Below are positions 11,351 through 64,000 of a DNA stretch of 64,000 nucleotides, piece by piece. This stretch comes from a virus. The notes beneath the pieces were generated by a model. The model ran no database searches. It was given only the letters and a program-made list of their open reading frames with translations, and was not told the DNA's origin. Positions within the stretch are counted from its first letter, which is position 1. The number at the start of each line of letters is the position of its first letter. Location of the stretch: the IMG/VR virus record IMGVR_UViG_3300008110_000075, positions 17,343 to 81,342 of that record; one strand, 5' to 3'. The position numbers and the translations under genes were made by a program.

Positions 11351-11378
11351 AAAAAGGGATTTTTAAATCCCTTTTTTT
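11351..11378. terminator. Bidirectional intrinsic terminator
   Basis: GGGATT...AATCCC hairpin flanked by A-run on the left and T-run on the right, between the convergent metallopeptidase and collagen-like genes. The stop codon of the minus-strand gene is inside the hairpin. Confidence 0.85.
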
Positions 11379-48685: not shown

Positions 48686-51535
48686 TTAATCCTGTGCACA
48701 TTTACAGCTCGCGTTTGAACATTGTTTTGATGAACAAGAGATAAGAGAATTATCTACGCTGTCAATACAATAAGCAACTATTGTTGGGTCAGGTCCTGGA
48801 CTTCCTGAAACGTTGTCTATCATATTACCCGAAGAATTTCCACTTGTTATTGTTACGGTTTTATAAAATACCCCATAGTTACTCGTCTCAATCTGAATCG
48901 AAAAACTAGTATCAATTGTCACAATGTTTTGCGTAGTAATTACTATGTCCACTGCGGGTTCACCCAAATTAGTAGTTGGTGTCACAATCAAACTTGTCAC
49001 AGGATTACAAACAATACTTCCACCATCACTATTATAAACCATCTTGAACACATCACCTGCAACAAGATTAATCGGGTTATACATAACAACACTAACACTT
49101 TCATTTATTCCCGCAGAACAGAATCCGTTGAAAATACCCGAGCCAACTTCAACGTCATTCAGCATTGCTTTAACCTCAACATAATAATTGTCGCTTGTTG
49201 GTGTTTGGAAGTTTGCCTGCATGTATTGAACATTATTATTTGGGGATATACCACACGGATATGTGGATAGTCCTGAATCAATTGTAAGAACACCACCAGT
49301 AGGGCTATATCTGAAATTTTGGAAACAACCCACCTTATTTGGTCCTGAACAAATTAATCCTCCAACTAATTGATTCATGTTGAGATAAATGTTACCACTT
49401 TGAATAACACCTTGACATGTTACACATTCAGGTGTATCAACCTGACCTTGATAGGTGATTGAGTTGTTATTCACCTGTGTTTTTTCTGTATCACCTACCG
49501 CTGAACAACAAGTGCATCCTTTGATGACTACATCAGAAACTTGAAAAGAAATTGTCTGTTGTAGATTAGTTGTGCAGTTGGACTGAGCTCCAACTTGACC
49601 ATCGGTTATTGTTAATATCGAAGTAGTAGAACCTGAAACAGTGCTAAAATTTGAGAGTTCCAACGAATATTGGTCAGTCTCAGTATCAATTCTTTGTGTC
49701 TCGGGATTACAGTTTGGTCTACTTCCAATAACAGTATCTATGTCTGTGGAGAAAGGTGTCTTTGTTGAACCATTTTGTAGAATAGTAAAGTTGTCTACAC
49801 AAGTTCCTGTTCCTGGTCCATTGAATGTCTTGATAGATGATGTTGTCAAATTGAAATTAACCACAACTCCATTAGGTATAGGCGGAACCGAAGTAACATA
49901 AAAATATGTTGTTTTCGTTGAAATATTATTTGAAGATACCTCAGTGTTTAATTGTGGTTGTGTTATAATATTAATTTGATATGTTTGTGGACTTCCCACT
50001 GAACTTATTTGAACCGATTGATTAACTATATTATTCGCGGCATCTATAACTCTAATATTGTATGTGTTCGGGCAAAGATTTGTAAAAATATTTGAGGTTT
50101 GATATGATACCCCGTTATTAATCGAATATTGATATGGTGCTAATCCAAATCTCGCACTAACCGTTATTGAACCATCACAGTTCGTTTGGTTGTTGCAAGA
50201 CGCATCTTGTTTTGTTGTTGTCACTTGAAGTGGTATTATTGTAGGACAAGAACCTAAAGTTACATTTATAGTATAAGTTTGTGTTCCACCAAGTAAACTC
50301 CAACCACCTAAAGGTGGTAATGAAGTGGTTGAGGACGCAAAAATACCTCCCCCCACAGGGTTTATTGGTGTTATCAAATCTGAACCAACAAGTTCCCATC
50401 TTGTTCCTTTCCACACAATGTTCTGTGAATTACTACTTGTCCATCTTGGTTTACCATTAGACGTTCCATTTTGACTGAACGTTGTTGGTCCTACAACGTT
50501 AGAATTGTTGTATGCCAAGAAACAAATGTTGGCGTAAACTGGTGGAGGTGTTGTGGATGGCGTTACAGTTGGGGATGGAGTTGGACTTGCTGTCGGTAAA
50601 AGTATGGAGCAAACTGTGTTTGCAGTATAGTCACCGTAATAATCAACAACGGTAACAGGATAATAACCAGGTCCTATGTTAGTTAAAGTTCTTGTTCTTT
50701 GACCATTTGCCCAATAAATTGAATACGGACTTGTTCCTCCTGTGATGTTCAAAGTGAGAATCCCATCATATGATTCTGAGTTTGAAGGCATTTTGAGAAG
50801 ATTACAATTCACACCCAAATCGAAAAGGGTAAACGGTTCACAATTGTTTTTCGGACGATAAACTGGTGTTGGGTTAGGTGTTGGTGTTTGACTTGGTGTT
50901 ACATTTGGTGTCAGACTTGGCGTTTGAGTAGGGGTCGGTGTAGTTGTGAGAGTAGTTGTTGGTGAGGCTGTTTGTGTTGGTGTTGGGGTCAGGCACGCTG
51001 TGGTTGCAGGCTCGTTCAATAAAACTACACCACTATAAACTTGAGTATAATCTAACGAAACAAGGACTTCAAAACTTTCACCTTTTTGGAAATTACCACA
51101 ACAATCTGTATACCAAAATATTCCAGTTGTATAAGCACTTCCACACACTATTGGGGTGGATGATGGGGTCTGCGTTGGTGTAGGGGTATTAGTGGGAGTT
51201 TTGGTAGGGGTCGGTGTTTGGGTTGGAGTTTTAGTTTGCGTAATAGTTTGTGTTGGTGTTGGTGGTGGGGTTTGAGATTGGGTTGGCGGGGGGGTTTGAG
51301 TCGGTGTTTGTGTAGGGGTTTGGCTCGAAGAAGGAATAGGGGGCGTGGGACAAGCACCGAGAACTGTGAGTATTATGAACTCACCTGGAGCTTGACCTGG
51401 CACAGTATAGGAACAAACAGTTATTGTGCCGCTCGGTGGAATTGTAGGAATAGGATTCAATTCACAGTCAAACCCTATAGGAGTTGCAGGTAAAATTGCG
51501 GACCCATTTGTTATTTGATAGTTAATACAAGCCAT
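48686..51535 (-). CDS. Modular tail adhesin with SprB-type repeats and Thr/Pro linkers
   Basis: 949 residues. Globular beta modules alternate with mucin-like linkers of TPTQTP type (about 72-130, 185-225 and 312-335). Two modules match the SprB repeat: one near 258-310 (ITGGTSPYSIYWANGQ, then TLTNIGPGYYPVTVVD) and one near 448-510 (PYQYSINNG, then FTNLCPNTYNIRVID). SprB is the gliding-motility adhesin of flavobacteria, so the modules may have come from the host. The Cys-rich C-terminal part (CKCAQD end) has several paired Cys. Function as a surface-exposed tail adhesin is inferred; Ser/Thr linkers are candidate glycosylation sites. Confidence 0.7.
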   Translation of the reverse strand: MACINYQITNGSAILPATPIGFDCELNPIPTIPPSGTITVCSYTVPGQAPGEFIILTVLGACPTPPIPSSSQTPTQTPTQTPPPTQSQTPPPTPTQTITQTKTPTQTPTPTKTPTNTPTPTQTPSSTPIVCGSAYTTGIFWYTDCCGNFQKGESFEVLVSLDYTQVYSGVVLLNEPATTACLTPTPTQTASPTTTLTTTPTPTQTPSLTPNVTPSQTPTPNPTPVYRPKNNCEPFTLFDLGVNCNLLKMPSNSESYDGILTLNITGGTSPYSIYWANGQRTRTLTNIGPGYYPVTVVDYYGDYTANTVCSILLPTASPTPSPTVTPSTTPPPVYANICFLAYNNSNVVGPTTFSQNGTSNGKPRWTSSNSQNIVWKGTRWELVGSDLITPINPVGGGIFASSTTSLPPLGGWSLLGGTQTYTINVTLGSCPTIIPLQVTTTKQDASCNNQTNCDGSITVSARFGLAPYQYSINNGVSYQTSNIFTNLCPNTYNIRVIDAANNIVNQSVQISSVGSPQTYQINIITQPQLNTEVSSNNISTKTTYFYVTSVPPIPNGVVVNFNLTTSSIKTFNGPGTGTCVDNFTILQNGSTKTPFSTDIDTVIGSRPNCNPETQRIDTETDQYSLELSNFSTVSGSTTSILTITDGQVGAQSNCTTNLQQTISFQVSDVVIKGCTCCSAVGDTEKTQVNNNSITYQGQVDTPECVTCQGVIQSGNIYLNMNQLVGGLICSGPNKVGCFQNFRYSPTGGVLTIDSGLSTYPCGISPNNNVQYMQANFQTPTSDNYYVEVKAMLNDVEVGSGIFNGFCSAGINESVSVVMYNPINLVAGDVFKMVYNSDGGSIVCNPVTSLIVTPTTNLGEPAVDIVITTQNIVTIDTSFSIQIETSNYGVFYKTVTITSGNSSGNMIDNVSGSPGPDPTIVAYCIDSVDNSLISCSSKQCSNASCKCAQD

Positions 51536-51566
51536 TAATTTATAATTATCTTTTCCATTTTTTTAT

Positions 51567-52907
51567 TTATGAACATCCACCACAATCTACGCTATCAGTG
51601 CAAATAGTTACACTACTACAAGGTTGAATTGATGTAACCCCACCTGAAAAATCACCCGACCCAGCTCGGATGCACCTTTCGACTTTTGAACCTGCAGAAA
51701 GTGGTTCACCAACTACTGAACCATCACATAAAGTATATTGTATTGTTGAACCCACAACATCTTGATTTTCAAAGTAATAACACAAACATGGACAAACATA
51801 AGTTCCACAAGAGCTTATATCATCGAAATTAGTTATTGCCACTACAACACCATTTAAGATTTCCATAACATAAAGTGGTGGTGACGATATATCAGGATTT
51901 GCTGGATACGTAGATGGTCCGTATACATATTTTCCTGTAAGAGTTGTGTTTACAAAAAATATTCCAAAAAGATTATAATATAATTGACTGCCAGGTCCTA
52001 AAGTAGTTGAAGAATTGTAATAATACCCTGCGTTTCCATCTACCTCAACTAATGGGTCGAAAGCTTCTATAAAATCACATTTCACTTCTTCTTTTGTTTT
52101 TGATGTCCAATTTATTTCTGACCCACATATAGTTGCCCCATATGATAAAAGAAACTCAACAAATGAAGGTGTAACCGTTGGCGTTTGTGAAGGGGTTTCT
52201 GTTTGGGTAGGAGTTTGAGGAGGTGTTTCAGATTGGGTAGGAGTTTGGGTTTGGGATGGAGTTTGAGTTTGTGTTGGTGTCGATGGAACACAAAGTGAAA
52301 AAGATACTATTTTACCTTGGGAATCAATTACCACTTGATATAATGTTCCTCCGAAAGAAATGATATATGTGTTCCCACCCCCATTCAAAGGGTTATATAA
52401 TACCCCGTTTAGAAGTGTTTGGTAAATTGTGGCACCTACAACAGGGACTAAATTTGCCTCTGAAATGTATGTATAATAACCTGTTAGATTGAGTGGTGAT
52501 GAACAACTATCAGCTGTCGGGTGAAAAACAACAAGAGGTGTTGCGGTTGGTGTTGATGATATAGTTGCTGTATTCGAGGTAGTGGGTGAATTTGTTGGTG
52601 TCATGGATGGCGTTTGGGTTGGTGACAAGGTAGGTGAATACGACGGGGTTGGTGTCATGGTTGGGGTTTTAGTGACATTTGGTGTTGGTGTGGGAGTTAT
52701 ATCTATAGGAATCTCATCAATACAACCTTGGGTATCTTCAATTTTAATAACAATTGTTGATTCACTATATGGTGATGGGACATAGAATGAGAATGGAAAT
52801 GTTGCAACCGACGCAACAAATTGACAGTCGCCACCACCCGAGTTACAATAATATATGTCAACTGGTGTATTTGCAGTTACAGATTGGATAGTTACAAATT
52901 GACTCAT
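51567..52907 (-). CDS. Thr/Pro-linker tail adhesin
   Basis: 446 residues from the ATG at 52907, which overlaps the upstream stop as ATGA. A short N-terminal beta domain (about 1-70) is followed by a TPT-rich linker (about 72-125), a beta module, a second linker of the SQTQTPTQ type (about 220-255) and a Cys-containing C-terminal part. The first domain resembles the 72-residue upstream gene. Probably a surface component of the tail with O-glycosylation-prone linkers. Confidence 0.65.
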   Translation of the reverse strand: MSQFVTIQSVTANTPVDIYYCNSGGGDCQFVASVATFPFSFYVPSPYSESTIVIKIEDTQGCIDEIPIDITPTPTPNVTKTPTMTPTPSYSPTLSPTQTPSMTPTNSPTTSNTATISSTPTATPLVVFHPTADSCSSPLNLTGYYTYISEANLVPVVGATIYQTLLNGVLYNPLNGGGNTYIISFGGTLYQVVIDSQGKIVSFSLCVPSTPTQTQTPSQTQTPTQSETPPQTPTQTETPSQTPTVTPSFVEFLLSYGATICGSEINWTSKTKEEVKCDFIEAFDPLVEVDGNAGYYYNSSTTLGPGSQLYYNLFGIFFVNTTLTGKYVYGPSTYPANPDISSPPLYVMEILNGVVVAITNFDDISSCGTYVCPCLCYYFENQDVVGSTIQYTLCDGSVVGEPLSAGSKVERCIRAGSGDFSGGVTSIQPCSSVTICTDSVDCGGCS

Positions 52908-53122
52908 GCTACATAAGTTACTCCTGAGATTATGCAATTCTGCGAATCAATTACTTTCAACATGTAAGCCAGTCCAGTATCATATGGTTGTGGTATATCA
53001 AAATCATATGGAAGAGTTGTTATAGTATTAATATAAAAGCAACCACTACCGTTTGGTTGACAGATATAAATGTCAAATGGTGATTGTCCTGTTATACCAT
53101 TTATTGTAACTTGAACTGCCAT
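52904..53122 (-). CDS. Small tail-associated protein
   Basis: 72 residues, beta-rich (SPFDIYICQPNGSGCFYINT). It looks like the N-terminal domain of the adhesin that follows, which it overlaps by 4 bases, so the pair may have arisen by duplication of that domain. It ends with the stop inside the next ATG. Function probably attachment or assembly of the adhesins. Confidence 0.55.
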   Translation of the reverse strand: MAVQVTINGITGQSPFDIYICQPNGSGCFYINTITTLPYDFDIPQPYDTGLAYMLKVIDSQNCIISGVTYVA

Positions 53123-53123
53123 C

Positions 53124-56100
53124 TTATGTTGTTCGTTTTATAAAAATTTTATACAAAGTTCCTGTCACTGATGGGAAAACAATTGTGTAACATCCTACAA
53201 GAGGTTTGTAATTGAATGGTGGATTTGTAAGTTGAACTGAATTCAACACGAAACCGCCATACTTGTTACATTCAACAACTTTTGTTGTTTGTGAGTTACC
53301 TGAAAGGAGATACCAAGTTCCACTGACATCAACAAACCCACATTGTGCACCGTAACGAATGTATTGTCCGAATTCATTACCAATATCAAACGGAAGGGTG
53401 GTTAGGTTAATTTCATCAGGTGTGCTAGATAAGACGAAGTTCATATTATAAGTTCCGTCTCCATTATTTTCCAAACTTACATTCAAATAAACCTCAACTT
53501 CATCAACACTACTCAAACACGTATCACAACTCAAATAGGTTTTATCAGGTGCTGAAGCAAAGTAATCTCCATCGAATCTTTGTGAGGTTGCAATTTTGAT
53601 AGGTGCAAAATAATTACAATCAAATTCACCCTCATAGGTCCAACAATTTCCATCAGCATCTTTAAATTGTCTTCCAACTGTAGTCTGTATTGGTGATTGT
53701 TGTGTTTGAATCATATATGTTCTGACTGTATTTGGACTAATTGGAATACAACTTGAATAAACATATACCAAACAAGGGGTTTCACTTGGCGTTGGGGTCA
53801 TCGTTGAAGTAGGACTATAAGACGGTGTTTGTGATGGAGTCTGAGTTTGGGTTGGCGTTGATGAATAACTTGGCCTTGGTGTTGCTGTTGGTGTAAGACC
53901 AGGAGTTGTTGTCTGTGTTGGAGTTGGCGTGAATGTAGGAGTCGAGGACGAAGTTTGTGTCGGCGTAATTGTCATCGTTGGTGTTGATGTAGGTGTTGAT
54001 GTTATCGTCGTTGAAGGTGATGGTGAAGGGACTGTTGAACATTTCGAACAATCGTTTCCAAAAATATCAATTATCGAGTCTACGTTCGTGTTAGATGATA
54101 AGTTTGAATCATCCCTCAAATACTTCAAGCAAAGAATTGTTTCATTAATAACCGCCGAGAATACCATCTCAGTTTGGATTGGAATTTCCTCAAACACAAG
54201 TGGGTCAGAAGTGTAGAAATAATTTTCAGTTCCACATTGATTCAATACCTTAACCGAAACACAACTGAATGTTTCTTCAAATATATTGAAGGTAACTTGT
54301 CCATCCGCAGGAACTGTTCTTGTCAGTGTTATCGTTGGTGTGTTTGAAGGGGTTGGGGTTGAATCAGGAACATAATTAATCTCAAAGTCGACACTTTTCC
54401 CAAGACATATCAATCCTGTTGGTGATGGAGTTGGCGTTACACCTATGGAAGTGAAAATGAAATTCACATCGTCACAAGGAACTGACGGACTTGGTGTTGG
54501 GACTGGTTCCCAATCACAGTCAAAGTATGCATTGAAATCGAAGGTGTCACAATTTATTGGCGTTGGAGTTGGAGTTGGACAAACTCCTGGTTCAAAAGAA
54601 CCGAAAGATATATCAGGACACGCAGAGTAACATGGAGACGAGCCCTTCAATAAACAAGTCCCACCGAGAGAGGTGCTCAGACACCAATAACTCTCAGTAA
54701 CTGATGTAAAATAATAAATGTAACCCAAGCTGACGCTTCCACCAGAATAGGAGATTCTACCATTATAAGTTGCACCTGAAACGTAAAGTCCATTGTAATT
54801 CAACAAAGAAGGTAGGGTTGTAGTAAAGCAAAATTCACCCGAATCACAAGCCGCTGGTGTCGAAGATACTGTCGGAGTGTTTGTTGGTGTTGAATACGGG
54901 GTTGGCGTTGGTGTGTTCAATAGACAAGCTCTACAACTACCCCAATCAGGTGCACCCAAATCAGGTCCACCAGGACCTGAAAACTCTTCGAATCTATAAC
55001 ATCTATTGTTATATTCATAAACCGCTCCTTGATAAGCGGTATCTTCATCAACATTGGCATAAAATATTTCTTCAGTGGAACAGTCAATCAATAATGCAGC
55101 AACACTCGCAACTCTTGGACAAAGTGTAGAACCGCAACCTGTTACATTTGTAAATGTAACCGATGTTCCATCATATATTGGACCACTTCCCGAATCAACA
55201 ACTGTCGCACATCCTTCATATTCTGTAGAACCTGTGATAAGATAGACATCGTCAACCACAACTGCAACTGGTAAATCCTCAAATCTGAATAAAGTCCCTG
55301 AAACACAATCACGGAACCCTATTAGGTTTTGTGTCGGTGTTTGAGTGTTAGTTGGGGTATTAGATGGCGTTTGAGTTGGGTCTGGAGTTACAGAAGGTGT
55401 CTGTGTCGGAGTTTCGGTTTGAGTTTGGGTTGGTGTTACATCAGGGGTTGGTGATAGAGTCTGTGAAGGCGTCTGAGTTGGAGTTTCTGAAGGTGTTTGT
55501 GTAGGAGTCTCAGTTGCTGTAGGGGATGAACCAATAGTTGATGTAGGGGTCTGAGTTGGGGTTTCGGATGGTGTTTGTGTAGGAGTTTCTGAAGGCGTTT
55601 GAGTAATAGTCTCAGTTGGTGTTTGTGTGGGAGTTTCGGTTATTGTAGGAGTCTGAGTTGGGGTTTCAGAAGGTGTTTGAGTAGGGGTTTCAGATGGTGT
55701 TTGTGTAGGTGTTTCTGTTGCTGTAGGTGACGAACCTATAGTTGCGGTTGTTGTTGGTGTAGGCGTTTCGGTTGGAGTTTCAGTTGGAGTTTCAGTTGTT
55801 GTCGGTGTAGGTGTTGGAGTACCACAACAATCTACAAATGTATCCGTAGCATAAGACGATACTGGAAAGTAAGCGACATTGTTTTTATAATAATAAGTCG
55901 ACTGAACGTAATTTGCACAAAATGAATCGTCGAAAGTTCCTGCGTCAGCAAAACTTGCCGTGGTCAGTATATTATAACAATTGTAATAGTCTACGAATAT
56001 AGTGTTGTTTAGTGACGAAGGTGTATTACCCGTGGCATCATCCAAGTCAGGTTGTGCAATTGTAACATCAAAATATGTACAATTACAAGGAGTTGAAGGG

Positions 56101-56858
56101 GTTGGAGTTTGTGTTTGAGTTGGCGTAGGAGAAGGGACTACACCACAATCTCCATCAACCACACAAGTTCCTCCCAAAGATGTCCAAGTATATAAAGGCT
56201 CAGGTCCTCCTGCACAGGTAGTTCCCGATGAAACAAGTTTTAATCCTTGTGTTCCACCCGATATACAAATATATCTACTTGATGTCACATCAACTTGAAC
56301 ACATTCCTCATTTCCATTACACGCGTAGTATCTGATTGAAATATCTACAATATCATTGTTAGTGATTTCCCAACATTCGCAATCACCAGGTGGTGTTAGG
56401 GTAGGTGTTGGGGTAGGTGTTGTAGTTGGCGTCTCAGTAAGAGTTGGTGTCGGTGTTTGTGATGGGCTTACAAAACAAGGACCAACAACGGTCAAAATTG
56501 CAGATGGACCGCTTATAACGGTTCCAGCCAGTGCACAAAAAACATCAGTATTACCGTTGGTTATTGTGGCGTTTTGGGGTACAGAATCACAATCAGTGTA
56601 AGAATAAGGTTCTGAAATAGGCCCTGAAAAACCTAAATATAATGAATATTGAACACAACCTGTCTGTGGTGTTGGGGTAGGTGTTTGTGTTTGTGTTTGC
56701 GAGATTGCTGGAGCTGGAGGGTCTGGGTCCGTTGGAGTAGGGGTTGGAGTTTCTGTTGGCGTTTCTGTTACAGTTGGAGTTGGTGTAGGTTCCGTTAGAA
56801 TAATATCCGTCAGGCGCAAATGTTGTAAGACCTGAGTCAGAATATAAAGTACTACCAC
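53124..56858 (-). CDS. Large Thr/Pro-rich tail adhesin (main part; true N-terminus is in another frame)
   Basis: 1244 residues as an open frame, but the first 23 residues look like non-coding frame; sense coding appears to start near 56790 (EPTPTPTVTETP...). Long linkers of PTQTPSETPTQTP type alternate with beta modules; the longest (about 346-509) contains a duplicated block TIGSSPTATETPTQTPSETP. Several Cys-rich modules follow. The preceding 239-residue frame reads into this one if one base is removed near 56789-56795, so both are parts of a single adhesin of about 1.39 thousand residues. Likely a tail-surface adhesin with heavily glycosylated linkers. Confidence 0.65.
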   Translation of the reverse strand: MVVLYILTQVLQHLRLTDIILTEPTPTPTVTETPTETPTPTPTDPDPPAPAISQTQTQTPTPTPQTGCVQYSLYLGFSGPISEPYSYTDCDSVPQNATITNGNTDVFCALAGTVISGPSAILTVVGPCFVSPSQTPTPTLTETPTTTPTPTPTLTPPGDCECWEITNNDIVDISIRYYACNGNEECVQVDVTSSRYICISGGTQGLKLVSSGTTCAGGPEPLYTWTSLGGTCVVDGDCGVVPSPTPTQTQTPTPSTPCNCTYFDVTIAQPDLDDATGNTPSSLNNTIFVDYYNCYNILTTASFADAGTFDDSFCANYVQSTYYYKNNVAYFPVSSYATDTFVDCCGTPTPTPTTTETPTETPTETPTPTTTATIGSSPTATETPTQTPSETPTQTPSETPTQTPTITETPTQTPTETITQTPSETPTQTPSETPTQTPTSTIGSSPTATETPTQTPSETPTQTPSQTLSPTPDVTPTQTQTETPTQTPSVTPDPTQTPSNTPTNTQTPTQNLIGFRDCVSGTLFRFEDLPVAVVVDDVYLITGSTEYEGCATVVDSGSGPIYDGTSVTFTNVTGCGSTLCPRVASVAALLIDCSTEEIFYANVDEDTAYQGAVYEYNNRCYRFEEFSGPGGPDLGAPDWGSCRACLLNTPTPTPYSTPTNTPTVSSTPAACDSGEFCFTTTLPSLLNYNGLYVSGATYNGRISYSGGSVSLGYIYYFTSVTESYWCLSTSLGGTCLLKGSSPCYSACPDISFGSFEPGVCPTPTPTPINCDTFDFNAYFDCDWEPVPTPSPSVPCDDVNFIFTSIGVTPTPSPTGLICLGKSVDFEINYVPDSTPTPSNTPTITLTRTVPADGQVTFNIFEETFSCVSVKVLNQCGTENYFYTSDPLVFEEIPIQTEMVFSAVINETILCLKYLRDDSNLSSNTNVDSIIDIFGNDCSKCSTVPSPSPSTTITSTPTSTPTMTITPTQTSSSTPTFTPTPTQTTTPGLTPTATPRPSYSSTPTQTQTPSQTPSYSPTSTMTPTPSETPCLVYVYSSCIPISPNTVRTYMIQTQQSPIQTTVGRQFKDADGNCWTYEGEFDCNYFAPIKIATSQRFDGDYFASAPDKTYLSCDTCLSSVDEVEVYLNVSLENNGDGTYNMNFVLSSTPDEINLTTLPFDIGNEFGQYIRYGAQCGFVDVSGTWYLLSGNSQTTKVVECNKYGGFVLNSVQLTNPPFNYKPLVGCYTIVFPSVTGTLYKIFIKRTT
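55330..55820 (-). repeat. Mucin-like PTQTPSETP-coding repeats
   Basis: About 490 bases of tandem 6- and 12-base-periodic units coding Thr-Pro-Thr-Gln and Thr-Pro-Ser-Glu, with a longer duplication of the GSSPTATETP block. Confidence 0.8.
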
Positions 56859-57312
56859 TCCAAAGTCCTTCTACTGATGAGGTGTAATAACCTGTACCAC
56901 CTGTAGATGCAAAATCAGAACAAGCAGACGGACCACTTATGACTGAGTATGAAACCAAAAAGGTGTTTGCACCTAATGGACCACAAAAATTGTCGTATAT
57001 TGATATTCCTATTTCAGTAATCCCGTCGTAAATTACGTTGGGAAAAGATTGAGTTGCCGAGCCGCCAGCACCCGCATCAAAATTTTGTTTTCTACCAGTA
57101 CTATCTGTAACCTCGATACAACCATTCAACAACCCATTACTCCAATATACAGTAAGAGTGTACTCACCAACTTGTGTAGTGGTGAATGCACAAGTACTCG
57201 AACTTGGCGTACAAGGACATCCCACATCACAAGTTGCTGTAACACCGTTAAAGTCAATTTGACTTATAGTAATTGTGGGTGGTGACTGATTATAAACAAA
57301 TATGTTAGACAT
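56593..57312 (-). CDS. N-terminal part of the large adhesin (frameshifted)
   Basis: 239 residues as an open frame. Up to about residue 175 (ending TFAPDGYYSNG) it is a normal beta-rich virion domain with Cys pairs; the remaining residues (NRNANRNSNPYSN and onward) are out-of-frame translation of the Thr/Pro linker. Its frame is one base off the 1244-residue frame; deletion of one A at GGAACC (about 56789-56795) joins them as YYSNG-PTPTPT. Either an indel in the assembly, a real knock-out, or phase-variable expression. A TTATTTATAA box precedes the start. Confidence 0.6.
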   Translation of the reverse strand: MSNIFVYNQSPPTITISQIDFNGVTATCDVGCPCTPSSSTCAFTTTQVGEYTLTVYWSNGLLNGCIEVTDSTGRKQNFDAGAGGSATQSFPNVIYDGITEIGISIYDNFCGPLGANTFLVSYSVISGPSACSDFASTGGTGYYTSSVEGLWSGSTLYSDSGLTTFAPDGYYSNGTYTNSNCNRNANRNSNPYSNGPRPSSSSNLANTNTNTYPNTTDRLCSIFIIFRFFRAYFRTLFLH

Positions 57313-57656: not shown

Positions 57657-58595
57657 ATGAAAGAACCTCTATTAGACTTACATCTGAGTCATGGATTAGG
57701 TGACACTATTTGTGCAACACCTTCTTTAAGGAAACTATATTTTGCTTATGGAAAAAAAATATCAGTATTAACTGACCATCCACTAATATTCAAACATAAC
57801 AAATATGTTGATAAAATCTTTGATACCAAGAACACAAATAGAGATGATTTAGAATCTCAATACGAATTACTCGTAAGTTTTGCACCAAATTTAGAAAACC
57901 GATACGGTTTAGGATTACGTCATAATGTTATGGACATAAGACAATTCCATGCGGCGGGGTTGGGTTTCCAATTATTACCCGAGGAATGTGATATGGATTA
58001 CGTTCCTGATGAGTGGGAGCCAATTGATGGTTTACCTGAAAAGTTTGTTTTGATACATCCCGTAACCTCTTGGGCTTCGAGAACTTGGCCCGCAGAGAAA
58101 TGGCAGTTATTAACACGAATGTTAAACGATTACGGTATTCCTGTTGTTTCGATGGGGAAGGCATCGAGTGAGGTAGGTTTTCACATGGTAGACAAACCTG
58201 TTTTCGATTTCCCTATCAAACTTGGTTTGAATTTAATGAATAAAGCAAATGTCCCCCAAACTTGGTGGTTAATGCAAAAAAGTATTTGCACGGTCACCAT
58301 GGACTCAGGTATGTTACACTTAGCAGGAACCACAGATGCAAACATCATTCAATTAGGTAGTTCTGTTCATTGGAAGTTAAGAGCCCCTTTTCGAAACGGT
58401 TCTCAAGAATATAAATTTCATTATATTGATGGGGATTGTAAGATAGCATGTGCATCTGACATGAGATATGGTGTCAAAGAATGGGGTTCAATAAGAGGAA
58501 TCCCACCTTTAGTTGGATGTTTAGAAGGAAAATCCGAATTTGTTTGTCATCCTAGCGTTCTACAAATTTTCAATAAAATATTAACCCTATTATGA
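57657..58595 (+). CDS. Glycosyltransferase family 9-like (heptosyltransferase fold)
   Basis: 312 residues. GLGDTICATP (13-22), IHPVTSWASRTWPAEKW (about 131-147) and DSGMLHLAGTT (about 215-225) are the typical motifs of GT9 enzymes, which transfer heptose or related sugars from an ADP-sugar onto lipid A core or proteins. A short C-terminal part carries four Cys. The start of the giant transferase overlaps its stop as ATGA, so the two are co-translated. Phages seldom encode GT9 proteins; the acceptor is unknown, and virion protein glycosylation is inferred. Confidence 0.8.
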   Translation: MKEPLLDLHLSHGLGDTICATPSLRKLYFAYGKKISVLTDHPLIFKHNKYVDKIFDTKNTNRDDLESQYELLVSFAPNLENRYGLGLRHNVMDIRQFHAAGLGFQLLPEECDMDYVPDEWEPIDGLPEKFVLIHPVTSWASRTWPAEKWQLLTRMLNDYGIPVVSMGKASSEVGFHMVDKPVFDFPIKLGLNLMNKANVPQTWWLMQKSICTVTMDSGMLHLAGTTDANIIQLGSSVHWKLRAPFRNGSQEYKFHYIDGDCKIACASDMRYGVKEWGSIRGIPPLVGCLEGKSEFVCHPSVLQIFNKILTLL

Positions 58596-61500
58596 GTATA
58601 AGATACAACTTTATAGAGGTCGGAACATCAGACTTCATGACTCTAATTCAATCTGCTGATGACCAAACTGTCGGACTCAGTATCGAACCCATTTCAGAAT
58701 ATCTCGATAGATTACCTAATAAACCCAAAGTTCAAAAAGTCAATGCGGCTCTTTCTGATACAGACGATACTATTGAAATATATCATATAGAATCTAAAGA
58801 TTTAGAAAAATACAATCTTCCCTATTGGATTAGAGGATGTAACTCTGTTAATGGTCCTCATGAATTTACAAAGAAAAAAATTGGTGATGAAACATATAAC
58901 AAGTTGGTAAAAATTGATAAAGTCCCAACTATATCTTGGAAAACTTTAATAGAAAAATACAATATAGGTTCAATTGATTATTTAAAAATTGACACTGAAG
59001 GTCATGAACATATAATTTTAAAAGGGTATCTCGAACAATGTAGACTGAATCATAATCTTTTCGCATCTAAAATTGAATTCGAATACAATGAAACATCAAA
59101 TAAAATTGAATTAGATAAAATTATAAATCAATTATCAAATTATAATGTAACTTATTTGGAGGAAGACGTTATATTGAACATCAAAACAGAGTCTGAATTT
59201 GACAAATCTTATGTCTTATATTCAACCGAAAATTACTTTGATATTGTAACTGAATGTGCAAAATCAATAAGACAATTTAGTAAACTACCAATATTGGTTT
59301 ATTTAATAAATTCAAACAGAACTGTTGAAGTAGAAAATACCAAGACTTTAAATTGGTCTATAGATATCGAACCTACTTCAAATAACATGTATATTAAGGA
59401 AAGGGACAACTTTTACATAGATAGAAAAAATCCAATAATTTATAAAATTTTATCTCAAAGACCTCTGATTATCAAAGATGCTTTAGAAAAATATTCAAAT
59501 ATTGTTTGTTATGTTGACAGCGATTCAATCGCAACCCCTAACGTTGATACTATATTTTCATATTATGATGAAAATTCATCTCACCCATATTTTGTTGAAG
59601 GGATATACGATTTTTTGAAATACGATGGTAGAGGTGGAGGAGGAGGATTCGGAGGTGGAATGGAAACAACTTTGGAACACGATACCTGTGTCTTGTTTGG
59701 TGTTGACCAATCGGTCAGAAAAAACTATAGACAAACAGGATATTTCGTTTCAGGTCAAAATACCATCGAGTTTTTGGAGGAATGGTATTGGATGTGCTCA
59801 CACCCAAAAGTCCTGAAAAATGTTAGTCATTATGCTCCGTATAATGAGGAGACTATTTGTAACGTTCTATTATGGAAATACAATATAGATAAGGGTCTTC
59901 CCTATGTCTATGTCAATGGGAGATTAGAAACGGTTGAGAAAATGTATACCCAAGTAGAATATAAAGGAAAGGGTATCAGAAACCACATCGGTGAATGGTT
60001 AAGAGTTCCTGAAGAAAAAAATCATCTCCTGTTTTTTCATGGTGAAAAAAATCCAAACATGATGAGAGAGATGGTAGATGAAATCAAAAAATATAACAAG
60101 GAAAAACTTAGAATTTTATACTTAGCACCTCACCTTTCAACTGGTGGTATGCCAGCTTACTTATTGAAAAGAATCGAAACCCTACAAGAATATTACCCTG
60201 AGGTAGAATTATATGTTGTTGAGTATTGTCTTTACTCAACTTGGTATGTGGTTCAAAAAGAAAAAATAAAACAAATTATACCCGATAACAGATATTGGAC
60301 ATTAAACACTTTGGGAAATCATAATGATGAAAATTCTCTGAAGTTAATTCAAATTATAAAAGATAATTCAATTGATATTGTTCATGTTGACGAAATACTT
60401 GAGGGGTTTGATAGTTTCAATCGAGTATCAATAAATGTCTTAAATGCACTTTTTGATAACAACAGAACTTGGAAAATTGTCGAGACCTGTCATAATATTC
60501 ATTTTAATCCTGAGAATAGACATTTTCATCCCGACGCTTACGCCTTCTGTTCTCCCCATCATCCGAAGGTTCAATTCAAAAATGAAAATTCTTATTATGA
60601 ATTTTTTGAATACCCTATTGACCGAAAATTTGTTACCGAAGAACAAAAAGAACACGCAAGGTTAAAACTTGGTTTAGACCTTAATAAAACCCATGTGATA
60701 AACGTTGGACTTTGGACTCAAGGAAAAAATCAAGGAGAGGGCATCGAAATCGCAAGATATCTACAAGGTGAAGATATAGAGTTTCATTTCATAGGAAATC
60801 AAGCATCAAATTTCGAAAGTTATTGGAAACCTCTGATGATGAATTTACCATCAAATGTAAAAATTTGGGGTGAAAGGAGTGATGTGGATTTGTTTATGAA
60901 AGCATCAGACATATTTTTATTTAACTCCACAATTGAATGTAATCCCCTTGTTCTTAGGGAAGCCGCTTCTTATGGTTTAAAAATTCTTTCTAGAAATCTT
61001 ACACAATATTATGATATGTTTACACCATACATCACACCAATTGATGATGATTGTGAGAAAACGTCAAACATAATTCGTGAGTTAAAATACAATGGAATCT
61101 CAAGAGACTATGAAGTTAGTCATGACCAATCTCAGAACTTTGCTTTATCTCATAAAAAGTTTTATGAGAAGTTAAAAACTATGGATATAAAGATTCAAAA
61201 ATCATCAAAGAATAATATACAAATTACTCAATATTTTATAAGACAACCTTTTTTAGAAATTAAAGGGGATTCAAGTTCTAAGTTTTTGGTTCAATTCATT
61301 GATGATAAAGGGGTAATTCATTATGAAAATAAAATAGATTCCAACTGTTGGGTAAAACTTAACAGACAATATTTTACAAATTGGAGAACTAAGGTTTACG
61401 AAGAAGAAACACTAATATATGACTCGAAATTAGATTTGAAAGACAAAAGAGTGTTTATAAATTTTGATAGTAAATCTTTAGGTGACAACATTGCTTGGGT

Positions 61501-62281
61501 GCCTTATGTTTTGGAGTTTCAAAAGAAACATAATTGTAAAATTATTCTTTCCACATTTTGGAATAAGTTATTCAAAGAAGTTTACCCTGAGATAGAATTC
61601 ATAGAACCAGGGAATGTTGTAAAAGACATTCATGCACAATACTCCATTGGTTGGTTTTATAATGAAAATATGGAACCAGTAATCCCGAATACAATTCCTC
61701 TCCAAAAAGCAGCAACAAACATCTTAGGTTTGGAATTTGAAGAAATAAAACCACGAATTAATTTTAACGTTTATCGAAGACCTTTTGATGAAAAATATAT
61801 AAGTATCGCAACCAATTCCACCTCAGGTTTAAAATTTTGGAAAAAAGAATATTGGCAAGAACTAATTGATTACTTAGTAGATTTAGGTTTCAAAGTAATA
61901 AACGTATCAAAAGAAAAAAATGAGTTCAGAAATGTTACACAAATTTCAGATAGTTCAATTGGTAATACCATGAATGTAATACATCATAGTGAATTTTTCA
62001 TAGGTTTATCAAGTGGACTTTCTTGGTTGTCTTGGGCAATGGGTAAACACGTTGTGATGATTAGTAATTTTACTGAACCCGACCACGAATTTACCACAAA
62101 CTGCACCCGAATTATAAACAAATCAGTCTGTAATGGATGTTGGAATAACCCCAACTTCAAGTTCGATAAAGGTGATTGGGATTGGTGTCCAATTCACAAA
62201 GGAACACCAAGACAATTTGAGTGTCACACTTCAATAACACCAAGTATGGTAATAAATCAAATTCAAAATTTATTGAAATGA
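58592..62281 (+). CDS. Giant four-domain glycosyltransferase/methyltransferase
   Basis: 1229 residues. Domain 1 (about 1-200) is FkbM-type AdoMet methyltransferase (FIEVGTSDF at 7-15, LKIDTEGHE near 130-138). Domain 2 (about 205-500) looks like a GT-A glycosyltransferase, with the metal-binding YVDSDS near 306-311 and a glycine-rich loop. Domain 3 (about 505-865) is a GT-B glycosyltransferase, ILYLAPHLSTGGMPAYL at the start and an E-x7-E site in ECNPLVLREAASYG near 782-795. Domain 4 (about 945-1229) resembles TibC-type strand-loop-strand O-heptosyltransferases: SLGDNIAW, then Cys 1180, 1183, 1199 and 1211 in CNGCW, WCPIHK and RQFEC. The protein may build and cap a glycan on Ser/Thr of virion proteins. 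Domain order is from sequence, function is inferred. Confidence 0.8.
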   Translation: MSIRYNFIEVGTSDFMTLIQSADDQTVGLSIEPISEYLDRLPNKPKVQKVNAALSDTDDTIEIYHIESKDLEKYNLPYWIRGCNSVNGPHEFTKKKIGDETYNKLVKIDKVPTISWKTLIEKYNIGSIDYLKIDTEGHEHIILKGYLEQCRLNHNLFASKIEFEYNETSNKIELDKIINQLSNYNVTYLEEDVILNIKTESEFDKSYVLYSTENYFDIVTECAKSIRQFSKLPILVYLINSNRTVEVENTKTLNWSIDIEPTSNNMYIKERDNFYIDRKNPIIYKILSQRPLIIKDALEKYSNIVCYVDSDSIATPNVDTIFSYYDENSSHPYFVEGIYDFLKYDGRGGGGGFGGGMETTLEHDTCVLFGVDQSVRKNYRQTGYFVSGQNTIEFLEEWYWMCSHPKVLKNVSHYAPYNEETICNVLLWKYNIDKGLPYVYVNGRLETVEKMYTQVEYKGKGIRNHIGEWLRVPEEKNHLLFFHGEKNPNMMREMVDEIKKYNKEKLRILYLAPHLSTGGMPAYLLKRIETLQEYYPEVELYVVEYCLYSTWYVVQKEKIKQIIPDNRYWTLNTLGNHNDENSLKLIQIIKDNSIDIVHVDEILEGFDSFNRVSINVLNALFDNNRTWKIVETCHNIHFNPENRHFHPDAYAFCSPHHPKVQFKNENSYYEFFEYPIDRKFVTEEQKEHARLKLGLDLNKTHVINVGLWTQGKNQGEGIEIARYLQGEDIEFHFIGNQASNFESYWKPLMMNLPSNVKIWGERSDVDLFMKASDIFLFNSTIECNPLVLREAASYGLKILSRNLTQYYDMFTPYITPIDDDCEKTSNIIRELKYNGISRDYEVSHDQSQNFALSHKKFYEKLKTMDIKIQKSSKNNIQITQYFIRQPFLEIKGDSSSKFLVQFIDDKGVIHYENKIDSNCWVKLNRQYFTNWRTKVYEEETLIYDSKLDLKDKRVFINFDSKSLGDNIAWVPYVLEFQKKHNCKIILSTFWNKLFKEVYPEIEFIEPGNVVKDIHAQYSIGWFYNENMEPVIPNTIPLQKAATNILGLEFEEIKPRINFNVYRRPFDEKYISIATNSTSGLKFWKKEYWQELIDYLVDLGFKVINVSKEKNEFRNVTQISDSSIGNTMNVIHHSEFFIGLSSGLSWLSWAMGKHVVMISNFTEPDHEFTTNCTRIINKSVCNGCWNNPNFKFDKGDWDWCPIHKGTPRQFECHTSITPSMVINQIQNLLK

Positions 62282-62952
62282 GTATAGAAAATTTTATATG
62301 GGAACCTAAATGTTACGATGGTTTTAGAGAAACTGTGGAACAAGAAATATTTGTTGACAGGATTTACGAAAGATTTTTTGAGGTTGAAGAGGGCGATATT
62401 GTTTTCGATATTGGGGCTAGTTTAGGTCCTTTCACATATTCAATATTATCAAAGAATCCTTCTCACGTATTTGCTTTTGAGCCTAGTTTTGAAGAATTCA
62501 AAACTTTGTTATTAAATACAAGACACGGAAATGTAACCGCAATAAATAAAGGTATTTCGAGTTCAATAGGTGAATTTAATTTCACTGATGTTTTTGATTT
62601 GACTGGTGGTTATAAACTATATTCAACAACATTCTCAAAGGTAATTGAGGATTATAATATTAAAAAAATTGACTTTCTTAAAACTGATTGTGAATCAGGC
62701 GAATATGATATATTCACAATTGAAAATTTGTTTTGGATAAAAAATAATGTCAGAAAAATTGTTGGTGAGTGGCACCTTGGCCAGCCTTGGATGAAAGAAA
62801 AATTCAGAATTTTTAGAGATGTGTATTTGAGGGTTTTTCCTAACTTTAAAGTAATTTCTTTTGATGGAATTGATATAACTTGGCAAATATGGAATGATAA
62901 TTTTATCCCTTATTATAACGAAGTAATGATTTATATTGACAATAGTAAATAA
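62278..62952 (+). CDS. FkbM-family methyltransferase
   Basis: 224 residues from the ATG at 62278, which overlaps the preceding stop as ATGA; a 5' extension in the same frame lies inside that gene. FDIGASLG (43-50) is AdoMet motif I, FAFEPS follows, and DFLKTDCESGEYDI carries the FkbM hallmark Asp/Lys/Asp/Glu-Gly. FkbM enzymes O-methylate sugars or other hydroxyls. It would methylate the glycan built by the two transferases before it, or act on its own substrate. A bidirectional terminator follows directly. Confidence 0.8.
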   Translation: MSIENFIWEPKCYDGFRETVEQEIFVDRIYERFFEVEEGDIVFDIGASLGPFTYSILSKNPSHVFAFEPSFEEFKTLLLNTRHGNVTAINKGISSSIGEFNFTDVFDLTGGYKLYSTTFSKVIEDYNIKKIDFLKTDCESGEYDIFTIENLFWIKNNVRKIVGEWHLGQPWMKEKFRIFRDVYLRVFPNFKVISFDGIDITWQIWNDNFIPYYNEVMIYIDNSK

Positions 62953-63000: not shown

Positions 63001-64000
63001 TTATACTATTGGACGATACTCGAGTAATACTTTTTCTACGTCTTTTCTCTCAGCATTTATCATAAAGAACGCGTCGATATGAGAACTTTGAGAGTCTATG
63101 AAGACTTTATTATCTTCAATTTTGACAACAAAGTGTGTATTAGAAACACCAATTGGTGTTAATGATACCGAAATCGATTCCTCTTTTACTAATCCTATCC
63201 AATAATGAGGTAATTCTATTACGTTTCCTTGAACTCTACCTCTGAAATAAACACCATGTTCAGGACCCTCCAACACACCATATCTTAATCTCCAACCTTC
63301 TTTTGTAGGGTGAGGAATATCGAATGATTTAGAAGCCGCTGTTAATGCTCCTGTTATATTAGTGTCACCAGTCACTTTGAGTGTTGAACCATCAAACTGA
63401 AGGTTTTGTTCACCATTGATTGTTCCTGCGGTTCCTGTCGCAGTAAGGACATAGTCATTAACGTTGTTGTTGATTGTCCCGAGTCCAGAAGAACCTGATG
63501 TTCCACTTGTGCCAGAGGAACCTGATGTTCCACTAGTTCCCGAAGAACCTGATGTTCCGCTAGTTCCCGAAGAACCTGATGTTCCACTAGTTCCCGAGGA
63601 ACCTGATGTTCCACTAGTTCCCGAAGAACCTGATGTTCCGCTAGTTCCCGAAGAACCTGATGTTCCACTAGTTCCCGAAGAACCTGATGTTCCGCTAGTT
63701 CCCGAAGAACCTGATGTTCCACTAGTTCCCGAAGAACCTGATGAGCCTGATGTTCCACTTGTTCCAGATGAACCTGATGTTCCGCTCGAACCTGACGTTC
63801 CACTTGTTCCAGAAGAACCTGATGTTCCGCTAGTTCCAGATGAACCTGAACTTCCAGATGAACCTGATGTTCCAGATGTTCCATTTGTTCCAGAAGTTCC
63901 TGACGAACCACTTGAACCAGATGAGCCAGATGTTCCACTTGTTCCAGATGAGCCAGATGTTCCACTTGTTCCAGATGAACCTGAACTTCCAGATGAACCT
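63001..64000 (-). CDS. Fibre protein with Gly-Ser/Thr triplet repeats, 5' end beyond window
   Basis: The frame is open from the right window edge to the stop at 63001, about 332 visible residues. Bases from about 63485 to 64000 code Gly-X-Y triplets of GSS, GTS and GTN kind. The remaining C-terminal domain of about 160 residues contains FDIPHPTKEGWRLRYGVLE, then GPEHGVYFRGR, IELPHYWIGL and SVSLTPIG, a pattern shared with C-terminal domains of phage tail fibres and large bacterial surface proteins. The Ser/Thr content is much higher than in the GAQ-rich fibres. Possibly another target of the glycosylation cassette. The N-terminus lies outside the window. Confidence 0.75.
   Translation of the reverse strand, partial: GSSGSSGSSGTSGTSGSSGTSGTSGSSGSSGSSGTSGTNGTSGTSGSSGSSGSSGTSGTSGSSGTSGTSGSSGTSGSSGTSGTSGSSGSSGTSGTSGSSGTSGTSGSSGTSGTSGSSGTSGTSGSSGTSGTSGSSGTSGTSGSSGTSGTSGSSGTSGTSGSSGTSGTSGSSGLGTINNNVNDYVLTATGTAGTINGEQNLQFDGSTLKVTGDTNITGALTAASKSFDIPHPTKEGWRLRYGVLEGPEHGVYFRGRVQGNVIELPHYWIGLVKEESISVSLTPIGVSNTHFVVKIEDNKVFIDSQSSHIDAFFMINAERKDVEKVLLEYRPIV
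63527..63742 (-). repeat. Eight near-identical 27-base tandem repeats
   Basis: 216 bases made of eight 27-base units coding GSSGTSGTS, differing mainly at one or two positions. Prone to slippage, so copy number may vary between viruses. Confidence 0.85.

What the first reader, a model, noticed from the sequence alone, without database searches (positions are those of the whole stretch)
57657..62952. Phage glycosylation cassette with a giant four-domain enzyme
Three ATGA-coupled genes encode a GT9 transferase, a 1229-residue FkbM + GT-A + GT-B + TibC-like heptosyltransferase fusion, and another FkbM methyltransferase. Seen: the motifs and the Cys quartet of the C-terminal domain. Known: TibC-type enzymes O-heptosylate autotransporter Ser residues. 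Inferred: the cassette builds and methylates a glycan on virion proteins.
Basis: partly seen in the sequence, partly recalled or inferred. Interest (0 to 1): 0.85.

Follow-up and report, generated by a model that had tools for sequence, protein, structure and literature searches.

The report
Phage enzymes for glycosylating collagen-like fibres
A giant phage carries one four-part protein that joins three sugar-transferring domains to a sugar-methylating one, and the place of its relatives' genes in other phages suggests that they decorate the virus's own serine-rich, collagen-like fibres, though no chemistry has been tested yet.

Summary
Three ATGA-coupled genes encode a GT9 protein (312 aa), a 1229-aa FkbM + GT-A + GT-B + TibC-like fusion, and a second FkbM methyltransferase. 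The TibC-like part scores 293.6 bits on TIGR04414 (cut-off 200); its predicted structure matches crystal TibC (Z 38.9, 1.9 A over 349 residues). The catalytic Asp, Lys, Trp and the iron-finger Cys quartet are kept in 44 of 44 related segments; the adenine-contacting Arg is not (7 of 44; Thr here). The source is a jumbo phage, probably of Bacteroidota. TibC's known acceptor repeat (TIGR04415) is in 0 of 25 phage records. Instead, 32 of 45 dereplicated TibC loci carry a Gly-Ser/Thr-Ser collagen-like gene nearby (random placement: mean 7, maximum 16 in 2000 draws). On long contigs TibC is close to the Ser/Thr collagen type (median 1.4 kb, 12 contigs), not to the low-Ser/Thr type (47 kb, 6) or Thr-Pro linkers (10 kb, 8). 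GT-A-only loci had none (0 of 13, about 7 independent). The converse is weak: 9 of 106 Ser/Thr-collagen loci have TibC, against 2 of 117. Best reading: a cytoplasmic enzyme that starts, extends and methylates O-glycans on phage collagen-like fibres. Acceptor and sugar are inferred.

The parts
57657..58595 (+). ORF1, GT9-family glycosyltransferase (312 aa)
   Evidence: PF01075 5.2e-12; heptosyltransferase I/II/III profiles far below cut-off; tblastn above 45 bits only in near-identical contigs L001-L009 among the loci
58592..62281 (+). ORF2, 1229-aa four-domain glycan enzyme
   Evidence: no hydrophobic stretch of membrane-segment strength (maximum 19-residue Kyte-Doolittle 0.89)
58592..59161 (+). 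ORF2 domain 1: FkbM-type methyltransferase (residues 1-190)
   Evidence: PF05050 4.3e-13 at 21-183; not folded here
59174..60106 (+). ORF2 domain 2: GT-A glycosyltransferase with DSD motif (residues 195-505)
   Evidence: AlphaFold2 pLDDT 86.8 and Foldseek to GT-A enzymes; both aspartates of DSD invariant in 25 aligned sequences
60107..61195 (+). ORF2 domain 3: GT-B, GT4-type glycosyltransferase with E-x7-E motif (about residues 506-868)
   Evidence: PF00534 2.3e-8; predicted fold Z 29.0 to HepE 4xsp, 28.3 to BshA 6d9t
61196..62278 (+). ORF2 domain 4: TibC-like protein O-glycosyltransferase with iron-finger Cys quartet (about residues 869-1229)
   Evidence: TIGR04414 293.6 bits; PDB 4rap/4rb4 about 1e-52; fold Z 38.9, 1.9 A over 349 residues
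62278..62952 (+). ORF3, FkbM-type methyltransferase (224 aa)
   Evidence: PF05050 7.5e-7, TIGR01444 50.7 bits above cut-off 37.7; relatives beside TibC-like genes in L033, L046 and L061 and fused to one in L073
63001..64000 (-). 3' end of the Ser/Thr-rich collagen-like gene, the proposed acceptor; it continues beyond the window (record stretch 80714-86311 holds 491 triplets)
   Evidence: PF01391 Collagen 2.8e-25; 239 GTS and 184 GSS of 491 triplets, Ser at Y in 427

Best explanation
The cassette makes O-glycans on the phage's own Ser/Thr-rich collagen-like fibre protein. The TibC-like domain transfers the first sugar from a nucleotide donor straight onto the repeating serines of Gly-(Thr/Ser)-Ser triplets in the host cytoplasm. 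The fused GT-B and GT-A domains and the separate GT9 enzyme add further sugars, and the two FkbM domains cap sugars with methyl groups. Shown by computation: the four domains, the kept active-site and iron-finger residues (one donor-contact residue excepted), the lack of membrane segments, and the close genomic pairing of TibC-like genes with Ser/Thr-type collagen genes. Inferred: the acceptor, that it is a virion fibre, the order of steps, the identity of the sugar (heptose is possible, not established), and the benefit (stiffer, hydrated or shielded nearly proline-free collagen, or altered adhesion).
For: TIGR04414 293.6 bits, cut-off 200; TibC structures about 1e-52 by sequence, predicted fold Z 38.9. 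D110, K230 and W305 equivalents and all four Cys kept in 44 of 44 segments, T226 equivalent in 42 of 44 (residue roles from PMC4358343). 32 of 45 dereplicated TibC loci have a Ser/Thr-type collagen ORF in the fetched flanks; random placement gives mean 7.0, maximum 16 in 2000 draws. 29 of those 32 ORFs match PF01391 Collagen and 12 carry Peptidase_S74, an intramolecular chaperone of phage fibres (role recalled). On long contigs: distance to Ser/Thr-type collagen median 1362 bp, combined p 3e-4 (12 contigs); low-Ser/Thr collagen median 47 kb, p 0.48 (6 contigs); Thr/Ser/Pro/Gln linkers median 10.3 kb, p 0.56 (8 contigs). GT-A-only loci without TibC: 0 of 13 with any collagen ORF (about 7 independent). 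Same-strand neighbours with start-to-end coordinate differences of 46, 33, 45 and 9 in L036, L037, L040 and L071. Ser at Y in 427 of 491 triplets here and in 3014 of 3763 over the 32 ORFs (sum of the rows; the ORFs were picked for Ser/Thr content), and TibC modifies Ser, not Thr. Second FkbM fused to a TibC-like domain in L073.
Against: No chemistry, mass spectrometry or expression data. 13 of 45 loci show no Ser/Thr-type collagen ORF (10 none, 2 intermediate, 1 low-Ser/Thr), though several are cut off by contig ends, and 5 of the 32 positives have only 6-14 triplets. Most Ser/Thr-collagen loci have no TibC-like ORF in the fetched stretch (97 of 106); the converse test is 9 of 106 against 2 of 117, p 0.028, or 8 against 2 without the weakest hit, p 0.05. 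One of 12 contigs goes against the link (G016, p 0.96) and several are weak on their own (G012 0.36, G014 0.18). TibC's adenine-contacting Arg286 is Thr here. TIGR04415 acceptor repeats absent, 0 of 25. Fibre regions may gather host-interaction genes of any kind. Contigs are partly related, so the p values are optimistic.
Confidence: 0.6

Rival explanations
1. The enzymes glycosylate virion proteins, but the acceptor is another one: the Thr-Pro-rich linkers of the adhesin-like proteins next door, or capsid or tail proteins.
For: Several Thr-Pro-linker ORFs (48686-57312) lie directly upstream of the cassette, and several relatives have Thr-rich ORF ends nearby. Glycans on capsid and tail-tube subunits of Mycobacterium phages are reported (Freeman 2023, seen only as cited in PMC12619734).
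Against: Such linkers are scattered through the genome and show no closeness to TibC across 8 contigs (median 10.3 kb, p 0.56). TibC itself was found to modify Ser, not Thr.
Confidence: 0.17
2. The cassette alters a host envelope glycan (for example to exclude other phages); its place beside fibre genes reflects clustering of host-interaction genes.
For: GT9, GT4 and FkbM domains are usual in envelope glycan synthesis (general knowledge); ORF1 hits LPS heptosyltransferase profiles, far below their cut-offs.
Against: No membrane segment in the three proteins; the strongest domain match is to a protein O-heptosyltransferase; the link is to Ser/Thr-type, not low-Ser/Thr, collagen genes; GT-A-only relatives do not lie near collagen genes.
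Confidence: 0.15
3. The glycosyltransferases modify phage DNA bases.
For: DNA glucosylation is named first among the known uses when the four core glycosyltransferase groups of the moraphages are discussed (PMC12619734, passages).
Against: The TibC-like family acts on protein serine; the cassette lies among adhesin- and collagen-like genes.
Confidence: 0.04
4. The TibC-like domain has become a scaffold or binding part and only the other domains are active.
For: Arg286 equivalent lost; its change to Ala impaired TibC.
Against: Catalytic Asp, Lys, Trp and all four Cys unchanged in 44 of 44.
Confidence: 0.04

Closest known systems
TibC / AAH bacterial autotransporter heptosyltransferases (TIGR04414; PDB 4rap, 4rb4)
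   Same: N-terminal beta-barrel and catalytic fold (predicted), catalytic Asp, Lys and Trp, iron-finger Cys quartet with identical spacing
   Different: Fused behind FkbM, GT-A and GT-B domains; Arg286 and Pro300 replaced by Thr and Ser; no TIGR04415 acceptor repeats in 25 phage records; neighbour is a collagen-like gene
Virion protein glycosylation of Mycobacterium phages (Freeman 2023, seen only as cited in PMC12619734)
   Same: Phage proteins of the virion carry glycans
   Different: There on capsid and tail-tube C-termini; here a TibC-like fusion linked to collagen-like genes, with no glycan yet shown
Glycosylated bacterial collagen BclA and glycosylated collagen of mimivirus (review PMC8968730, passages)
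   Same: Sugar on collagen-like Gly-X-Y proteins of bacteria or viruses
   Different: No TibC-like enzyme is named in the passages read; BclA's Pro/Thr-type triplets are recalled, not checked
Microcystis phage Mel-JY01 WWT39291.1 (annotated methyltransferase FkbM)
   Same: About 1227 aa with a C-terminal TibC-like domain (40% identity) near a Ser/Thr-type collagen-like frame
   Different: The other three parts were not found by BLASTP at 1e-4; the collagen-like frame competes with a minus-strand gene in the depositors' annotation
Moraphages, large aquatic phages with mostly Bacteroidota hosts (PMC12619734, passages)
   Same: Large aquatic phages with four core orthologous groups that are putative glycosyltransferases
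   Different: Kinship to this phage not tested; words beginning with heptos or collagen do not occur in the paper's main text

Membership tests
TIGR04414 hepto_Aah_TibC | Profile score above curated cut-off | tested here: met
   293.6 bits against 200; 24 of 25 related records over the cut-off
TIGR04414 hepto_Aah_TibC | Catalytic base Asp110, Lys230, Trp305, Thr226 | tested here: met
   D965, K1081, W1145 in 44 of 44; T1077 in 42 of 44
TIGR04414 hepto_Aah_TibC | Arg286 contacting adenine of ADP-heptose | tested here: not met
   Thr1126 here; Arg in 7, Thr in 26 of 44 segments
TIGR04414 hepto_Aah_TibC | Four-Cys iron finger | tested here: met
   C1180, C1183, C1199, C1211 in 44 of 44, same spacing as TibC; iron itself not testable
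TIGR04414 hepto_Aah_TibC | Beta-barrel plus catalytic fold of TibC | tested here: met
   Predicted model residues 376-730 of the folded piece on 4rap_J 21-388, Z 38.9, rmsd 1.9 A, 349 aligned
TIGR04414 hepto_Aah_TibC | Dodecameric ring | not tested
   no complex was predicted
Bacterial autotransporter heptosyltransferase (functional class) | Partner autotransporter with TIGR04415 strand-loop-strand repeats | tested here: not met
   0 of 25 phage records, several of them fragments; the control rang in E. coli
Bacterial autotransporter heptosyltransferase (functional class) | Transfers heptose from ADP-heptose to Ser | not testable with these tools
   needs an enzyme assay
FkbM methyltransferases (PF05050) | Profile score above gathering cut-off, ORF2 N-terminus and ORF3 | tested here: met
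   50.2 and 29.9 bits against 22.7
Glycosyltransferase family 9 (PF01075), ORF1 | Profile score above gathering cut-off | tested here: met
   46.1 bits against 22
LPS heptosyltransferase I/II/III (TIGR02193, 02195, 02201), ORF1 | Score above equivalog cut-off | tested here: not met
   32.0, 23.7 and 18.7 bits against 185.3, 134.6 and 170.2
Collagen triple helix repeat (PF01391), neighbour at 63001-64000 | Profile score above gathering cut-off | tested here: met
   88.3 bits against 27.2
Collagen triple helix repeat (PF01391), neighbour at 63001-64000 | Forms a triple helix | not testable with these tools
   none of the 13 triplet types printed contains Pro; stability unknown

The most novel reading that the evidence does not exclude
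A widespread phage system of collagen glycosylation: TibC-type enzymes, often fused to extending and methylating domains as a one-protein assembly line, sugar-coat hundreds of regularly spaced serines on nearly proline-free Gly-Thr-Ser/Gly-Ser-Ser fibres in the cytoplasm, and the sugar, not proline, gives these viral collagens their stiffness or shields them.
Probability: 0.42. Interest if true: 0.86.

Novelty: new variant of a known kind. Interest (0 to 1): 0.66.

Why it matters
How phage collagen-like stretches made almost only of Gly, Ser and Thr are used or stabilised is not known to me. A TibC-like enzyme family that travels with that type of collagen gene gives a testable answer, extends a protein O-glycosyltransferase family known from bacterial adhesins into phages, and shows a possible glycan-building line in one polypeptide. 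It also gives a function to test for phage proteins that, like that of Microcystis phage Mel-JY01, are labelled only as FkbM methyltransferase.

Tried and rejected
Autotransporter-type acceptor in the phage: rejected, TIGR04415 0 of 25 records (the 25 include several near-identical records of this phage). Thr/Ser/Pro/Gln linkers as the linked acceptor: no closeness. Phage-borne ADP-heptose synthesis: PF13580 (GmhA-type) 0 of 10 records; TIGR02199 below its cut-off in 2 of 10 and no match in the window's own record or its 321-kb relative. Bacterial relatives: the one genome-contig scan, made with a single sequence, gave 1 relative out of 19 stretches, a MAG contig (L105) that itself carries a collagen ORF and may be phage; it says little about bacteria. 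L105 is one of the 44 segments and one of the 45 loci. Converse test (Ser/Thr-collagen loci, how often TibC?): only weakly positive; both scans stopped at their limit of 120 stretches, 106 and 117 of which had an in-frame array, one Ser/Thr locus (L216) lies on the same contig as L037, and one of the 2 hits in the control set has a Ser/Thr-type array. Literature: searches for TibC + heptosyltransferase + phage (5 papers, by title none on phage TibC), O-heptosyltransferase + bacteriophage (0 papers), collagen-like + phage + tail fiber + glycosyl (13 listed) and jumbo-phage terms (50 papers, 10 listed) showed me no report of this pairing in titles and abstract starts; the library lacks most subscription papers. 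The 'pdb_via' result covers mostly model residues 4-366; families it does not list are not excluded.

Counting choices: the Ser/Thr class is pooled Ser+Thr at X and Y of 0.6 or more, the low class below 0.45, at least 6 triplets in runs of 5 or more. G019 has no Ser/Thr-class ORF and is left out of that test (12 of 13 contigs); contigs without the other two classes are left out of those tests (6 and 8 of 13). Of 79 loci examined, 66 had a TibC ORF and 45 remained after removing TibC segments of 90% identity or more. One search looked at 40 hand-chosen loci. A first test without classes gave p 4e-4 over 13 contigs. The 13 GT-A-only loci fall into about 7 groups by the BLASTN list; their loci are shorter (median 8.4 kb) than the TibC loci (13.4 kb). 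TibC gene borders were entered by hand and are approximate for some contigs. The null draws from the same 13 contigs. Genes are longest open frames, not annotated genes; among the 32 collagen ORFs only that of L102 has a long competing frame on the other strand.
Full report
What is there. The three genes are as described. ORF1 (57657-58595, 312 aa), ORF2 (58592-62281, 1229 aa) and ORF3 (62278-62952, 224 aa from the coupled ATG) run on the plus strand with ATGA at both junctions. The surroundings run on the minus strand: Thr-Pro-linker adhesin-like genes at 48686-57312, one with SprB repeats (PF13573), and a collagen-like gene that ends at 63001 and leaves the window (PF01391 2.8e-25). The window is a piece of a 155,783-base virus record. 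A contig with an ORF2 of 100% identity as rounded, 321,283 bases long (L007), begins and ends inside what looks like the same collagen-like gene, so the complete genome is probably a circle of a little over 321 kb (inference). Phage markers in the window include SbcC-like and DNA primase PHROGs. SprB repeats and, in the long contig, a 1091-aa CarboxypepD_reg plus OMP_b-brl_4 protein point to a Bacteroidota host (inference).

The four domains. Pfam finds FkbM (21-183) and GT4 (687-810); NCBIfam finds TIGR04414 at 897-1226 with 293.6 bits, above its cut-off of 200. The GT-A part had no profile hit, so I predicted it alone with 24 relatives from viral contigs: pLDDT 86.8, pTM 0.89. Its best matches are alpha-1,3-galactosyltransferases, glycogenin and UGGT, with E 3e-7 to 1.4e-5 and TM-scores of only about 0.4-0.5 of the query length, so the GT-A fold is clear and the exact family is not. 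The two aspartates of its DSD motif are invariant in 25 sequences. The GT-B plus TibC piece (730 aa, 39 sequences) gave pLDDT 89.5 and pTM 0.56, so the domains are good and their mutual placement is not. Its second half lies on crystal TibC with Z 38.9 and 1.9 A over 349 residues, beta-barrel included; its first half lies on GT4-type enzymes with Z up to 29.0.

Active-site residues. The TibC paper (PMC4358343; passages, section 11) names Asp110 as candidate base, Arg286, Trp305, Thr226 and Lys230 as donor contacts, and Cys339/342/358/370 as the iron finger. In the alignment to 4rap these fall on D965, T1126, W1145, T1077, K1081 and C1180/1183/1199/1211 (my count along that alignment). Over 44 TibC-like segments from 41 loci (40 from phage contigs, one, L105, from a MAG contig), D965, K1081, W1145 and all four Cys are unchanged in 44 of 44 and T1077 in 42 of 44. 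Arg286 is the exception: Thr in 26 and Arg in 7 of 44, and Thr here. In TibC this Arg contacts adenine, and its change to Ala abolished or largely diminished activity. Pro300, the stereoselectivity residue, is Ser in 25, Gly in 18 and Ala in 1 of 44; Ser is what AAH has there. So a working transferase is likely, but an ADP-heptose donor is not shown. I found no GmhA-type gene (0 of 10 records) and only sub-cut-off HldE-type matches (2 of 10), so any heptose would probably come from the host.

How widespread. One scan of viral contigs returned 74 loci that encode relatives of ORF2, eight of them near-identical copies. The domains are shuffled: FkbM+GT-A+GT-B+TibC, GT-A+GT-B+TibC, GT-B+TibC, TibC with N-termini not recognised by BLASTP, TibC followed by a weakly similar GT-A, tandem full and short TibC copies, and GT-A alone. 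The ORF3-type methyltransferase recurs beside TibC genes (L033, L046, L061) and in L073 is fused to one. Microcystis phage Mel-JY01 has an about 1227-aa relative labelled only 'methyltransferase FkbM'. Huge-phage records of 735 kb (two entries with the same length and match) and 636 kb also have one.

The acceptor. The known target of TibC, the TIGR04415 repeat, is in 0 of 25 phage records, while the control search rang in E. coli. Looking at neighbours instead, many TibC loci have a gene for a Gly-X-Y protein whose X and Y are mostly Ser and Thr. After removing TibC segments of 90% identity or more, 32 of 45 loci have a Ser/Thr-type collagen ORF in the fetched flanks, 26 of the 32 within 2.2 kb and 27 of the 32 with at least 24 triplets (the other 5 have 6-14); 2 more loci are intermediate, 1 has a low-Ser/Thr type and 10 have none. 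Placing the same flanks at random on 13 long contigs of these phages gives a mean of 7.0 and a maximum of 16 in 2000 draws. In 21 of the 32 the nearest collagen ORF is on the opposite strand and in 11 on the same strand; in L036, L037, L040 and L071 it is the same-strand neighbour at coordinate differences of 46, 33, 45 and 9. Of the 32 ORFs, 29 match PF01391 and 12 also carry Peptidase_S74, the fibre chaperone (role recalled). Their triplets have Ser at Y in 3014 of 3763 and contain Pro in 27 of 3763 (my sums; the ORFs were picked for Ser/Thr content, so this is not an independent test).

Controls. Phages of this kind can carry two sorts of collagen-like genes. On the 13 long contigs the TibC gene lies near the Ser/Thr sort (median 1362 bp, combined p 3e-4, 12 contigs; G016 is clearly against, with p 0.96) but not near the low-Ser/Thr sort, mostly Ala/Gln-rich (median 47 kb, p 0.48, 6 contigs), and not near Thr/Ser/Pro/Gln linkers (median 10.3 kb, p 0.56, 8 contigs). 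GT-A-only loci, whose GT-A is 47-52% identical to that of ORF2 but which lack a TibC-like ORF, have a collagen ORF in 0 of 13 loci; these are about 7 independent groups with shorter flanks. The converse is weaker: of 106 loci caught by a Ser/Thr-triplet pattern, 9 have a TibC-like ORF (one of them very weak, another modest), against 2 of 117 caught by an Ala/Pro-Gln pattern, and one of those 2 has a Ser/Thr-type array (Fisher p 0.028, or 0.05 without the weakest hit). So TibC implies a Ser/Thr collagen neighbour far more than the reverse; other fibres may be unmodified or served by other enzymes. Related contigs inflate all these p values.

Mechanism. The collagen-like gene of this phage has, in the record stretch 80714-86311, 491 triplets, 239 GTS and 184 GSS, with Ser at Y in 427 and Pro in none of the types printed (the stretch holds a run of N and a change of frame there, so the true number is larger). 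TibC was found to modify Ser, not Thr, and a screw-like processive action on a regular solenoid inside its ring was proposed. A long regular row of Ser fits such an enzyme (inference). None of the three proteins has a stretch of membrane-segment strength, so a lipid-carrier route is less likely, and direct transfer from nucleotide sugars in the cytoplasm, where virion proteins are made, is more likely (inference). The GT-B and GT-A domains and ORF1 would extend, and the FkbM domains methylate. Glycosylation of bacterial collagen BclA is believed to help its hydration network, and mimivirus can glycosylate its collagen (PMC8968730, passages), so a stabilising role is plausible but untested.

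Comparison and verdict. By profile, residues and fold the C-terminal domain is TibC-like; by acceptor and donor features it is not a bacterial autotransporter heptosyltransferase as defined (TIGR04415 partner not found, Arg286 not kept). Virion glycosylation by phages is reported, and large aquatic phages with mostly Bacteroidota hosts and four core glycosyltransferase groups are published (PMC12619734, passages). I found no report of TibC-like enzymes in phages or of their pairing with Ser/Thr collagen genes in the searches, of which I saw listings only. I therefore call it a new variant of a known kind, with a well-supported anatomy, a good comparative case for the acceptor and no chemistry.

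Noticed in passing
L084:6060-9332 (G001 126060-129335): The 321-kb relative encodes a 1091-aa CarboxypepD_reg + OMP_b-brl_4 protein with a signal-peptide-like start, like a Bacteroidota outer-membrane receptor.
   Followed up: partly
53124-57312 (-): The Thr-Pro-linker adhesin-like gene is split into two overlapping frames in the window but is one 1433-aa ORF in the relative L093, so the split is a variant or an assembly error.
   Followed up: partly
11363-18751 (-): Three consecutive collagen-like genes with low Ser/Thr content (typed in the 321-kb relative) in a stretch of 49-55% G+C in a window of 36% G+C; the one at 16127-18751 ends in Peptidase_S74.
   Followed up: partly
L046:4771-8003, L061:4786-7955, L072:4951-7915: Tandem TibC-like genes, a long one and a short one of 281-298 aa whose profile match starts at about position 80, so that it seems to lack the beta-barrel.
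   Followed up: no
48686-51535 (-): A 949-aa protein with Thr-Pro linkers and SprB repeats, the repeat of a Bacteroidota gliding adhesin (role recalled).
   Followed up: no
G001:C1:146710-147249: A second, weak TIGR04414 match (35.6 bits, below cut-off) in a 217-aa frame of the 321-kb relative.
   Followed up: no
L096 (G000 80714-86311): The collagen-like gene holds a run of N and changes frame there, probably an assembly gap in the repeat.
   Followed up: no
L102:2-3052 (PP395634.1): In Microcystis phage Mel-JY01 a long plus-strand collagen-like frame (181 triplets) overlaps a minus-strand gene annotated by the depositors (739-2298); the collagen-like frame looks like the real one.
   Followed up: partly
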